This document shows, in pieces, positions 42,539 through 45,781 of a DNA stretch of 64,000 bases. The notes under the pieces were generated by a model, which was not told where the DNA came from, searched no databases, and was given only the letters and a program-made list of their open reading frames with translations. The stretch lies in assembly GCA_035968315.1 (NCBI GenBank), contig JAVYIN010000009.1, positions 1 through 64,000 on the forward strand. The letters run 5' to 3'. Origin of the DNA: Nitrospira sp. (lineage in GTDB: Bacteria > Nitrospirota > Nitrospiria > Nitrospirales > Nitrospiraceae). The position numbers were made by a program, and so were the translations under genes. Within the stretch, counting starts at the first letter, position 1. Every line of letters begins with the position of its first letter.

Positions 42539-42937
42539 ATGAAGGTCACCAAACTCCTCCACACCCGCATGCGCGTCAGCGATCTGGACCAGACGATCCG
42601 GTTCTATACGAACGTGCTGGGTCTTGAAGTGGTCGAACGCAAGACCTCGCCGCGCGGATCACAGCTCGCCTTTTTGAAAGTCCCCAACAGCGACGAGTTG
42701 ATCGAACTGACCAGCTTTCCCCCGAGCGGGCCTGTGAAGGTGCAGGAGGATCTGGTCCATCTCGCCTTTCAGGTGGAGAATCTTGACCACACCATCGCCT
42801 CGCTCACGTCAAAAGGCGTGAAGATCACGGACGGTCCCACACAGACCTCCTCCGGCAGCCGGTTCATCTTCATTGATGCCCCAGACGGCTATGAGATCGA
42901 ATTGATCGAACGGCCTCACGGCGTGACGATCGTCTGA
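42539..42937 (+). CDS. Glyoxalase I-like VOC protein
   Basis: A 132-residue vicinal-oxygen-chelate protein with two beta-alpha-beta-beta-beta units, closest to lactoylglutathione lyase: LLHTRMRVSDLDQTIRFYTNVLGLEVVERK, then VHLAFQVENLDHTI and FIDAPDGYEIELIE. The metal ligands H8, E56, H76 and E123 (approximate) are in place, supporting methylglyoxal detoxification or a related lyase activity. No SD is evident; the ATG directly follows the repeat. Confidence 0.88.
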   Translation: MKVTKLLHTRMRVSDLDQTIRFYTNVLGLEVVERKTSPRGSQLAFLKVPNSDELIELTSFPPSGPVKVQEDLVHLAFQVENLDHTIASLTSKGVKITDGPTQTSSGSRFIFIDAPDGYEIELIERPHGVTIV

Positions 42938-43021
42938 TCATCACCTCCCTCTTTTCCTGCCGATTGGCTTCATGCTACCTTCGACGCCTGACAGCATCGC
43001 TTCACCCTGAAGGAGATTGGT

Positions 43022-43891
43022 ATGAAGAACGGGTTTTTCCGCGGCCACGGCCTGGGCAACGACTACATCGTGATGGATCCAAAGGAACTGACGTTCAAAC
43101 TCACACCGAAGAACATCAAAGCGGTCTGCGACCGCAATTGGGGCCTGGGCAGTGACGGCATCCTCGCCCTCGTCCCGACCAAGAAAGCCGACTTCGGCCT
43201 GCGCATTTACAACCCGGACGGCAGCGAAGCGGAAAAATCCGGCAACGGGTTGCGCATTTTCGCCCGCTACCTCCATGCGACCGGCAAGACGAAGAAAAAG
43301 CATTTCACGGTTGAGACGAAAGGCGGCCTCGTCACCATCGATCTGCATGTAGATCGCCATGGCGACGCCAGCGCCGTCACGGTCGAAATGGGGCAGGCCA
43401 CGTTCAAACCGGCGGCGCTTCCTTGCACCCTCGGCGTGCCGGAATTGATTCAACAGCCGATCGACGCAGCCGGACAGTCGCTCCTGTTCACCGGCGTCAG
43501 TGTCGGCAATCCCCATTGCGTCGTTTTCAAGCCAACTGGGGAGTCCTGGTCGCGCGAAGAACTGCTGAAGCTCGGGCCTGTATTGGAAAACCACCCCCTC
43601 TTCCCCAAGCGGACGAATGTGCAATTGGCTGTCCCGACCGGGCCCAAGGAAATCTTCATCCTGATTTGGGAGCGCGGGGCCGGGGAGACGCAAGCCTCCG
43701 GTTCGTCCTCATGCGCGGCCGCGAGCGCGGCGGTGCGCCTGGGGCTGGTCAAGAGCCCCGTCACAGTCAAGATGCCGGGCGGCCAGCTCAACATCGAGGT
43801 CGCGCCAGACTTCAGCCTGACGATGAAAGGTCCCGTGGCCGAAGTGGCGCGGGGCAGCGTGAGCCCCTCGTTCCTGCGCGGGCTCAAGTAA
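43022..43891 (+). CDS. dapF: Diaminopimelate epimerase homologue with Ser/Ser active site
   Basis: A 289-residue DapF-fold protein. The family converts LL- to meso-diaminopimelate with two Cys acting as acid and base. Here both are serine: S73 in EKSGNGLR (canonical ECGNGxR; TCC at 43238-43240) and S226 in TQASGSSSC (canonical TLACGTGxC; TCC at 43697-43699). Other family blocks (GHGLGNDYIVMD, NPDG, GNPHCVVF, IWERGAGET) are intact, so it is not a decayed pseudogene. SD AAGGAG precedes ATG. It may have a different isomerase or lyase activity; canonical DapF activity is doubtful. The symbol marks homology only. Confidence 0.85.
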   Translation: MKNGFFRGHGLGNDYIVMDPKELTFKLTPKNIKAVCDRNWGLGSDGILALVPTKKADFGLRIYNPDGSEAEKSGNGLRIFARYLHATGKTKKKHFTVETKGGLVTIDLHVDRHGDASAVTVEMGQATFKPAALPCTLGVPELIQQPIDAAGQSLLFTGVSVGNPHCVVFKPTGESWSREELLKLGPVLENHPLFPKRTNVQLAVPTGPKEIFILIWERGAGETQASGSSSCAAASAAVRLGLVKSPVTVKMPGGQLNIEVAPDFSLTMKGPVAEVARGSVSPSFLRGLK

Positions 43892-43978
43892 GGCCGGCGG
43901 TCACCGTCAGGCGCCATTCGTCAATCGGCAAGAAAGAGCACGGTGGTTCCTGCTATTCTTACGATTGACGGATGATGT

Positions 43979-45781
43979 ATGACGACCGACGCACTCCACT
44001 CCAAACTCGACCATTTGCCGCCGAATCCAGGCGTCTATCTCTTCAAGGACCAGGCCGGCGACTATCTCTACGTCGGCAAGGCCGCGTCGCTGGCCGACCG
44101 TGTCCGCTCATACTTTCAACGCACCGCCGACCACAGCCCCAAAACGACGCTGCTCGTCAGCCAGATTGCCGATCTGGAAACCATCGTCACCCGGTCGGAA
44201 CTCGAAGCCCTCATCCTCGAAAGCAATCTGATCAAGCGGCACCGGCCCCGTTTCAACATCGTGCTGCGTGACGACAAGCAGTACCCCTATCTCCGCCTGC
44301 CGGTCAAAGAGCGGTTCCCCCGCCTCTCCATTGTCCGGCGCGTCCAAAAAGACGGCGCCCTCTACTATGGCCCCTACACCCCGGCCGGCGCACTCCGCGA
44401 AACGCTGAAGGTCATCAAGAAAGCCTTTCCGCTGGCGACCTGCACCATCGACATCGACGGGACGGCGGAGCGGGCCTGCCTGGAATTCGAGATCAAGCGG
44501 TGCATGGCGCCCTGCACCGGCAACCAATCGCAGGAGGAGTACCACAAGATCGTCAGCCAGGTTCGGCAGTTTCTGGAAGGGCGCGATCGTGAATTGCTGG
44601 ACGAATTGCGGGCCGGCATGGACGCCGCCGCGGAACGGGAGGAGTTCGAAGAAGCGGCGAGGATTCGTGACCGGCTCTTCAAGATCGAGCGGACGCTTGA
44701 AAAACAGCGCATCACCCAGACCGCATCGACGGATCAGGACGTCATCGGCCTTGCCCGGCAAGGCACCGCCGTGGATCTGCAGTTGCTCTTCGTGCGCGGC
44801 GGGCTCTTGATCGGCCGGAAGGATTTCTTCTGGCCCCAGTCTGCCGATGTGAGCGACGAGGACCTGGTCCGATCGGCCATCGAACAGTTTTACAATAAGG
44901 ACGGCCAACCGCCGAAAGAACTCCTCGTTCCCGCAGCCCTCGCCGACGCCGAACTGATCGAACAATGGCTCAGCGACAAACGGGGATCCGGCGTGAAGGT
45001 CCTCGCTCCGGAGCGCGGCACGAAACATCAGCTGGTATTGCTGGCGGAAGAAAATGCCGCCGCAGCAGTAGCCGATCATCTCAGAGACGAAGCCCTCGAC
45101 CTTCAGGCGGTCGAAGACCTGAAACGGTTGCTCCACCTCGACAAGGCTCCCAGACGGATCGAAGGATTCGACATCTCCAACACAATGGGCCAACAGTCCG
45201 TCGCCTCAATGGTCGTGTGGGAAGACGGCCAGATGAAGAAGGCGGATTATCGCCGGTTCAAAATCCAGACAGTGACGGGCGCCAACGACTTCGCCAGCAT
45301 GCAGGAAGTCGTCGCCCGGCGGTATGGAACATCAGAGGATTTGGCCCGCCCCGATTTGATCCTGATCGACGGAGGGCTCGGACAACTGGCCGCCGCCATG
45401 GAAGGGCTGAAGCAGGCCGGCCACCATGACCAAGCCATTATGGGCCTGGCCAAGGCGCGCGGTGAAAAAGATGAGCGCATCTTTCTGCCCGGCCGGAAGA
45501 ATCCCATCCTCTTGAGACCGAATGCCCCGGCTACGCACCTGGTGCAACGCATCCGCGACGAAGCGCACCGGTTTGCCTTGGGCTACCATCGCAAGCTCCG
45601 CGGCAAAGCCTTGATCGCGTCAAAGCTGGATCACATCATCGGGATCGGCGAGATCAGACGGACCACCTTGCTGAAACAGTTCGGCAGCGTCGATGCGCTG
45701 GCCGCGGCCAGCGACAGTGCCCTCGCAGAGGCCGGCCTCGACGCCACCACCATCGCGGCTCTCCGCAACACCCTCACCTAA
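43979..45781 (+). CDS. uvrC: Excinuclease ABC subunit C
   Basis: Dual-incision nuclease of nucleotide excision repair, 600 residues. GIY-YIG domain (about 14-95; PGVYLFKDQAGDYLYVGKA), UVR motif that binds UvrB (about 205-240; EREEFEEAARIRDRLFKIE), RNase H-like 5'-incision domain (about 380-530; IEGFDISNTMGQQSVASMV, LILIDGGLGQL) and C-terminal tandem HhH (IIGIGEIRRTTLLKQFGSVDALA). An extended -10 TGC-TATTCT is at 43951-43959. It ends 13 nt from the convergent FadL-type gene. Confidence 0.97.
   Translation: MTTDALHSKLDHLPPNPGVYLFKDQAGDYLYVGKAASLADRVRSYFQRTADHSPKTTLLVSQIADLETIVTRSELEALILESNLIKRHRPRFNIVLRDDKQYPYLRLPVKERFPRLSIVRRVQKDGALYYGPYTPAGALRETLKVIKKAFPLATCTIDIDGTAERACLEFEIKRCMAPCTGNQSQEEYHKIVSQVRQFLEGRDRELLDELRAGMDAAAEREEFEEAARIRDRLFKIERTLEKQRITQTASTDQDVIGLARQGTAVDLQLLFVRGGLLIGRKDFFWPQSADVSDEDLVRSAIEQFYNKDGQPPKELLVPAALADAELIEQWLSDKRGSGVKVLAPERGTKHQLVLLAEENAAAAVADHLRDEALDLQAVEDLKRLLHLDKAPRRIEGFDISNTMGQQSVASMVVWEDGQMKKADYRRFKIQTVTGANDFASMQEVVARRYGTSEDLARPDLILIDGGLGQLAAAMEGLKQAGHHDQAIMGLAKARGEKDERIFLPGRKNPILLRPNAPATHLVQRIRDEAHRFALGYHRKLRGKALIASKLDHIIGIGEIRRTTLLKQFGSVDALAAASDSALAEAGLDATTIAALRNTLT

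What the first reader, a model, noticed from the sequence alone, without database searches (positions are those of the whole stretch)
43238..43699. DapF homologue with both catalytic cysteines replaced by serine
S73 and S226 occupy the positions of the two acid/base Cys, while the surrounding substrate loops are preserved. In the related proline racemase superfamily, Cys changes switch epimerases to dehydratases, so a new reaction is plausible. If this is the only DapF in the genome, lysine and peptidoglycan synthesis would need another route or a Ser-based epimerase.
Basis: partly seen in the sequence, partly recalled or inferred. Interest (0 to 1): 0.7.

Follow-up and report, generated by a model that had tools for sequence, protein, structure and literature searches.

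The report
Cysteine-free DapF with two serines
The cell-wall and lysine enzyme DapF is textbook two-cysteine chemistry, but in this Nitrospira relative, and in a clade found in records of about 17 bacterial phyla, both cysteines are serine and this DapF is usually the only one, so these bacteria appear to make meso-diaminopimelate with a cysteine-free epimerase that has not been tested.

Summary
Window 43022-43891 (+) encodes a full-length DapF (NCBIfam equivalog cut-off passed) with Ser73 and Ser226 in place of E. coli Cys73 and Cys217. It is the only DapF in a 99.97% complete genome. It is not an error: orthologues in the family and its sister family are Ser/Ser, all six Ser codons occur at position 73 across the clade, and dN/dS is about 0.05.

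Ser/Ser DapFs form one well-supported clade in records of about 17 phyla. In 36 of 40 such genomes checked outside Nitrospirota it is the only DapF. All DAP-binding residues are kept, and new clade-specific invariants accompany the serines (Y15, K72, Q201, S229). In Nitrospirales it replaces the dapF lost from argH-lysA-dapF-dapA-dapB. The host has DapL, LysA and an mDAP-type MurE. A dehydrogenase bypass is absent from 37 of 39 other Ser/Ser genomes searched.

Best explanation: a true DAP epimerase working without catalytic cysteine. A new reaction is less likely. The chemistry is inferred, not measured; in characterised relatives a single Cys-to-Ser change nearly abolishes activity. I found no publication on this form.

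The parts
43022..43891 (+). dapF, 289 aa, Ser/Ser diaminopimelate epimerase homologue
   Evidence: ORF, TIGR00652 231.6 bits over cut-off 114.65, PF01678 two repeats; model pLDDT 96, best fold match DapF Z 36.5
43238..43240 (+). Ser73 codon TCC, at the place of catalytic Cys73
   Evidence: alignment to solved and E. coli DapF; directly before helix 74-86
43697..43699 (+). Ser226 codon TCC, at the place of catalytic Cys217
   Evidence: alignment; directly before helix 227-239
43235..43237 (+). Lys72, invariant in the Ser/Ser clade (Met/Phe/Gln in Cys/Cys DapFs)
   Evidence: column comparison, 75 Ser/Ser against 23 Cys/Cys sequences
43064..43066 (+). Tyr15, invariant in the clade (Phe13 in most Cys/Cys DapFs)
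43622..43624 (+). Gln201, 74 of 75 in the clade (Gly192 in E. coli; Glu or Asn mostly in the Cys/Cys set), two residues after substrate Asn199
43706..43708 (+). Ser229, 74 of 75 in the clade (Gly220 in all Cys/Cys), three residues after Ser226
42539..42937 (+). neighbour: VOC/glyoxalase-like gene upstream; VOC-dapF-uvrC order kept in family f1 (context, not part of the mechanism)
43979..45781 (+). neighbour: uvrC downstream (context)
   Evidence: TIGR00194 591 bits; conserved order

Best explanation
This is a genuine diaminopimelate epimerase (LL-DAP to meso-DAP) that works without catalytic cysteine. It folds, closes and binds DAP like ordinary DapF, with the reacting carboxylate between the N-termini of the two central helices. 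Ser73 and Ser226 sit where the two thiols normally stand and most likely act as the base/acid pair, their hydroxyls activated by helix dipoles and a clade-specific polar set (Tyr15, Lys72, Gln201, Ser229). Shown by computation: the Ser/Ser state, its single origin and conservation, the fold, intact DAP-binding residues, its being the sole DapF, and its replacement of the operon dapF. Inferred: that it epimerises DAP in vivo, and more tentatively that the serines themselves carry the protons.
For: (1) Only DapF in a 99.97% complete genome that has LL-DAP aminotransferase over its curated cut-off, LysA, DapA/DapB and a MurE with the DNPR motif, recalled as typical of mDAP-adding enzymes: LL-DAP is made and meso-DAP is needed. 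(2) Replacement in Nitrospirales: among 83 family f1/f3 genomes with a hit, 78 have the Ser/Ser gene, 5 have the other, operon-borne DapF, none has both. All 23 Ser/Ser genomes tested have lysA followed by dapA with no dapF between; 3 of 3 non-Ser/Ser relatives tested keep dapF there. (3) Outside Nitrospirota 36 of 40 Ser/Ser genomes have no second DapF, including isolates of Maribellus, Tangfeifania, Sunxiuqinia and Apibacter. In several Bacteroidota the gene lies next to dapL (TIGR03542 over 600 bits) and a lysA-like gene. (4) N11, N64, N75, N157, N190, E208, R209 (E. coli numbering) are invariant in the clade; their equivalents are required in C. glutamicum DapF (PMC5296763). (5) One clade, SH-aLRT 99, with the catalytic columns masked; all six Ser codons at position 73 and dN/dS about 0.05. 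(6) Precedent: Ser/Cys 4-hydroxyproline epimerase in the same fold superfamily (PMC4113996). (7) The model matches DapF structures first, including the C73S and C217S mutants.
Against: In characterised relatives Cys-to-Ser costs nearly all activity: under 0.1% left in PddB, similar reported for M. tuberculosis DapF (PMC8225329), greatly reduced in HisR (PMC11602996). A serine hydroxyl is a poor base for an alpha-carbon of pKa about 29 (PMC8142540). No activity of any Ser/Ser member has been measured. Genomes of family f18 carry both Ser/Ser and Cys/Cys copies, as do four of the 40 genomes outside Nitrospirota, so the function need not be the same everywhere.
Confidence: 0.72

Rival explanations
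1. It is the DAP epimerase, but the serines are not the proton carriers. Another residue of the clade-specific set (Lys72, Tyr15) or a bound water does one or both transfers, and the serines only position the substrate.
For: Lys72 and Tyr15 are invariant in the clade and absent or rare in Cys/Cys DapFs. Single Cys-to-Ser changes elsewhere are nearly dead, so something extra is needed.
Against: Ser73 and Ser226 are invariant through changing Ser codons and lie directly before the two facing helices. Ser at the first position is described as catalytic in proline-racemase superfamily members (PMC4113996). A second lineage has Ser73 without Lys72 or Tyr15.
Confidence: 0.14
2. It has a different reaction or substrate (dehydration, elimination, or epimerisation of a DAP derivative), and meso-DAP comes from another enzyme.
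For: In the proline racemase superfamily loss of the second Cys goes with dehydratase activity (PMC4113996). A few genomes carry Ser/Ser beside Cys/Cys DapF.
Against: All DAP contacts, including the distal L-centre residues N64, N157, N190 and R209, are invariant. It is the sole DapF in most genomes, and the operon dapF is missing exactly where it is present.
Confidence: 0.08
3. It is a non-catalytic relic and meso-DAP is made by a meso-DAP dehydrogenase bypass.
For: The host genome has a homologue of type II meso-DAP dehydrogenase on contig 5 (132.5 bits, below the TIGR01921 cut-off of 180.6; closest solved relatives are DAP dehydrogenases).
Against: Of 39 other Ser/Ser genomes searched only two have such a homologue, both below cut-off. 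In the host copy an Asp and an Asn of the solved type II enzyme read Met and His (alignment; their role in DAP binding is from memory). dN/dS about 0.05 is not that of a relic.
Confidence: 0.04
4. Sequencing error or chance substitution.
For: None beyond both codons being one base from TGC.
Against: 129 distinct Ser/Ser sequences from many independent genomes and assemblies, including isolates.
Confidence: 0.01

Closest known systems
Diaminopimelate epimerase DapF (TIGR00652, PF01678; E. coli, H. influenzae, C. glutamicum structures)
   Same: Length, two-domain fold, all DAP-binding residues, pathway context; passes the DapF equivalog cut-off.
   Different: Both catalytic Cys are Ser; Y15, P65, K72, I79, Q201 and S229 mark the clade; the Cys-Cys disulphide redox switch described for C. 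glutamicum DapF (PMC5296763) is impossible.
Proline racemase superfamily: Ser/Cys 4-hydroxyproline 2-epimerase and Ser/Thr trans-3-hydroxyproline dehydratase (PMC4113996)
   Same: Same fold superfamily (Z about 23-27); natural loss of one or both catalytic Cys with activity retained or changed.
   Different: Different substrates and about 14% identity; the structurally described Cys-free pair there belongs to a dehydratase.
Ser73/Cys217 DapF of the lysA-dapF-dapA operon in other genera of the same family (L078-L081, L083)
   Same: Ser at the first catalytic position; sole DapF of its genome.
   Different: Separate origin within the DapF tree; keeps the second Cys; lacks K72, Y15 and S229.
Laboratory C73S and C217S mutants of H. 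influenzae DapF (PDB 2q9h, 2q9j), CntK C72S, HisR C67S
   Same: Ser at the catalytic position in a DapF fold.
   Different: Engineered, single, and slow or nearly inactive; the natural clade has both changes plus a surrounding set.

Membership tests
DapF (TIGR00652 equivalog) | Full-length match above the curated cut-off | tested here: met
   231.6 bits against 114.65, residues 5-280 on 3-268 of 270
DapF (TIGR00652 equivalog) | DapF fold with two mirrored domains | tested here: met
   pLDDT 96.0; P. aeruginosa DapF Z 36.5, 272 residues, 1.9 A; E. coli DapF Z 36.0
DapF (TIGR00652 equivalog) | DAP-binding residues N11, N64, N75, N157, N190, E208, R209 and helix-end Gly74/Gly218 (E. coli numbering) | tested here: met
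   invariant in 75 non-redundant Ser/Ser sequences
DapF (TIGR00652 equivalog) | Two catalytic cysteines (Cys73, Cys217) as acid/base pair | tested here: not met
   both Ser in the window gene and in all 75 non-redundant clade members; a member by descent and probably by role, not by the textbook mechanism
DapF (TIGR00652 equivalog) | Interconversion of LL-DAP and meso-DAP | not testable with these tools
   no assay; inferred from sole copy, pathway completeness and gene replacement
Proline racemase / hydroxyproline dehydratase family | Sequence match to that family | tested here: not met
   Pfam scan gives only DAP_epimerase; structural similarity at superfamily level only, about 14% identity
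meso-DAP dehydrogenase bypass (TIGR01921) | Ddh over the curated cut-off in the host genome | tested here: not met
   contig 5 homologue 132.5 bits against 180.6; no match in 37 of 39 other Ser/Ser genomes, below cut-off in the remaining two

The most novel reading that the evidence does not exclude
A bacterial clade found in records of about 17 phyla runs an essential step of cell-wall and lysine synthesis with a naturally cysteine-free, Ser/Ser two-base amino-acid epimerase. A serine hydroxyl, activated by a small invariant polar set, would deprotonate an unactivated amino-acid alpha-carbon and give an epimerase immune to the Cys-Cys oxidation that inactivates ordinary DapF.
Probability: 0.55. 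Interest if true: 0.87.

Novelty: new variant of a known kind. Interest (0 to 1): 0.74.

Why it matters
DapF and its relatives are standard examples of two-cysteine proton transfer, and Cys-to-Ser is the standard way to slow or kill them. A large natural clade with both cysteines replaced, usually as the only DapF, would mean that the thiolate is not required for this chemistry. It would give a direct test of how proteins activate serine as a carbon base. It also predicts organisms whose DapF resists thiol oxidation and thiol-directed inhibitors such as aziridino-DAP, and it corrects active-site annotation for hundreds of genomes.

Tried and rejected
Sequencing error: rejected by orthologues. 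Second dapF in the genome: none. Relocated catalytic cysteine: Cys36 is invariant in the clade but also Cys in 19 of 23 Cys/Cys DapFs, so it is not a replacement; Cys231 is Ser in 10 of 75. Dehydrogenase bypass: weak homologue in the host and in two relatives, absent elsewhere. Glutamate-racemase bifunctional DapF (NF038284): 55.1 bits against cut-off 350. Published account of Ser/Ser DapF: none in the open library, which lacks most subscription papers. Two regular-expression scans missed the operon-type DapF because it has one extra residue (ERGVEGET); redone with phmmer. The genome-contig scan used the pattern AEKSGNGL, so it finds Ser at position 73 by design and cannot show how common Ser/Ser is among all DapFs, nor whether Cys/Ser intermediates exist.

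Full report
What is there. The ORF at window 43022-43891 (+) encodes 289 aa. It passes the NCBIfam DapF equivalog cut-off twofold (231.6 against 114.65 bits) and matches both repeats of PF01678. Both align with the catalytic cysteines of solved DapFs and of E. coli DapF, C73 and C217. A model built from 37 clade members (pLDDT 96.0, pTM 0.90) puts the serines directly before helices 74-86 and 227-239. The best structural matches are ordinary DapFs (P. aeruginosa Z 36.5 over 272 residues at 1.9 A; E. coli Z 36.0), and the H. influenzae C73S and C217S mutants are among them.

Not an error. Of 59 relatives, 57 gave a DapF match. In this family (f1) and the sister family (f3) every gene of this type that was read has Ser at both positions. 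Codons at position 73 include TCC, TCA, TCG, TCT, AGC and AGT across the clade; at position 226 all TCN plus one AGC. dN/dS between the window gene and its congeners is 0.03-0.06. The serines are under strong purifying selection.

Only copy, in a pathway that needs it. A PF01678 search of the 3.11-Mb, 99.97% complete genome finds this gene alone. The genome has an LL-DAP aminotransferase over its curated cut-off (613.7 against 593.25 bits), LysA (541 bits), DapA and DapB in an arg-lys operon, and a MurE carrying DNPR, recalled as the motif of mDAP-adding MurE. By established pathway knowledge LL-DAP must be epimerised before LysA and MurE can use it.

A gene replacement. Other Nitrospirales (f2, f4) and other genera of the same family (g13, g16, g18, g20) carry a different DapF inside lysA-dapF-dapA-dapB. 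In 23 of 23 Ser/Ser genomes of f1 and f3 tested, lysA is followed by dapA with no dapF between, while in 3 of 3 non-Ser/Ser genomes of f1 tested dapF is still there. Among 83 f1/f3 genomes with a hit, 78 have the Ser/Ser gene, 5 the operon gene, none both; these counts go by E-value band, one of the 78 being a fragment at a contig end. The Ser/Ser gene stands where a DAP epimerase is required. The operon DapF of those other f1 genera is itself Ser73/Cys217 (five sequences read), so no f1 gene read keeps Cys73, through two separate events.

A widespread clade. The 80 kept come from records named as Nitrospirota, Bacteroidota, Aquificota, Dadabacteria, Rokubacteria, Methylomirabilota, Gemmatimonadota, Chloroflexota, Cyanobacteriota, Armatimonadota, Planctomycetota, Verrucomicrobiota, Dictyoglomota, Actinomycetota, Bacillota and others; all but three are Ser/Ser. 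Most are metagenome bins, so some phylum labels may be binning errors; isolates include Maribellus, Tangfeifania, Sunxiuqinia and Apibacter. With the two catalytic columns masked, 75 non-redundant Ser/Ser sequences form one clade (SH-aLRT 99) set among Cys/Cys DapFs; the Ser/Cys pair is a separate event. The tree is a quick search with several long branches, so details inside it are soft. Of 42 genomes searched through those loci, two were Cys/Cys (L172, L177). Of the 40 Ser/Ser genomes, 36 have no other DapF and four have a second, Cys/Cys one, including Clostridium sp. LS, which may be a mixed assembly. In several Bacteroidota the gene neighbours dapL and a lysA-like gene.

Bypass. The host has a type II meso-DAP-dehydrogenase homologue (contig 5) below the family cut-off; in the alignment an Asp and an Asn of the solved enzyme are replaced by Met and His. 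TIGR01921 is absent in 37 of 39 other Ser/Ser genomes searched, and below cut-off in the other two. A dehydrogenase route cannot explain the clade.

What changed around the serines. Against 23 Cys/Cys sequences the clade keeps every DAP contact (N11, N64, N75, N157, N190, E208, R209, Gly74, Gly218) and H159. It differs at a small set of positions: Tyr15 (Phe13), Pro65, Lys72 (Met/Phe/Gln), Ile79 (Cys), Gln201, Ser229 (Gly220). The DAP contacts are those seen and mutated in C. glutamicum DapF (PMC5296763). Tyr15, Lys72, Gln201 and Ser229 are my candidates for the network that activates the serines; this is inference, as coordinates could not be inspected.

How it works. Most likely the enzyme closes over LL-DAP exactly as DapF does, one serine takes the alpha-proton and the other returns one to the opposite face. 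Precedents in the fold superfamily: a natural Ser/Cys 4-hydroxyproline epimerase, and a Ser/Thr protein that dehydrates 3-hydroxyproline, where the Ser is positioned by an Asn three residues on (PMC4113996). Ser229 stands three residues after Ser226 here. Against it stand the reports that Cys-to-Ser leaves under 0.1% activity in PddB, with similar behaviour cited for M. tuberculosis DapF (PMC8225329), and greatly reduced activity in HisR (PMC11602996), and the high pKa of serine (PMC8142540). Those are single changes in frames evolved for thiols; this clade changed the frame too.

Possible benefit. In C. glutamicum DapF the two catalytic cysteines form a disulphide on oxidation and the enzyme shuts (PMC5296763). 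A Ser/Ser enzyme cannot. This may matter for a nitrite-oxidising host, but the clade also includes quite different organisms, so it is only an idea.

Known or new. No paper in the open library describes a Ser/Ser DapF. The curated model already names such proteins DapF. I rate it a new variant of a known kind: member by descent, fold, binding site and probable role, failing the defining two-cysteine feature.

Noticed in passing
L180:1126-2043 (own genome contig 5, around 264,600): Type II meso-DAP-dehydrogenase homologue in which an Asp and an Asn of the solved enzyme are Met and His; patchy in the family (host, G103, G173). Function unclear.
   Followed up: partly
L078-L081, L083 (family f1, genera g13, g16, g18, g20): The operon DapF of neighbouring genera has Ser73 with Cys217 kept (FSGNGARC / ACGTG): a second, independent loss of the first catalytic cysteine, also as sole DapF.
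   Followed up: partly
L066 (G217 contig 22, 828000-834000): Tandem duplication of the VOC-dapF unit: two adjacent Ser/Ser dapF genes in one genome.
   Followed up: no
L094-L096 with L074-L076 (family f18): Genomes carrying both an operon Cys/Cys DapF and a Ser/Ser DapF, the latter with an atypical second motif (ASGTGAS, no Ser229).
   Followed up: partly
G114, G054, G194, G205, G210: Genomes at 95-100% estimated completeness with no DapF found by two searches; gap or real loss not resolved.
   Followed up: no
window 42539-45781 and relatives: VOC/glyoxalase-like gene, dapF and uvrC keep their order through family f1, with no obvious functional link.
   Followed up: partly
L124 (Clostridium sp. 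LS): A Ser/Ser dapF nested among Bacteroidota sequences in a record named Clostridium, beside a second Cys/Cys DapF: contamination or transfer.
   Followed up: no
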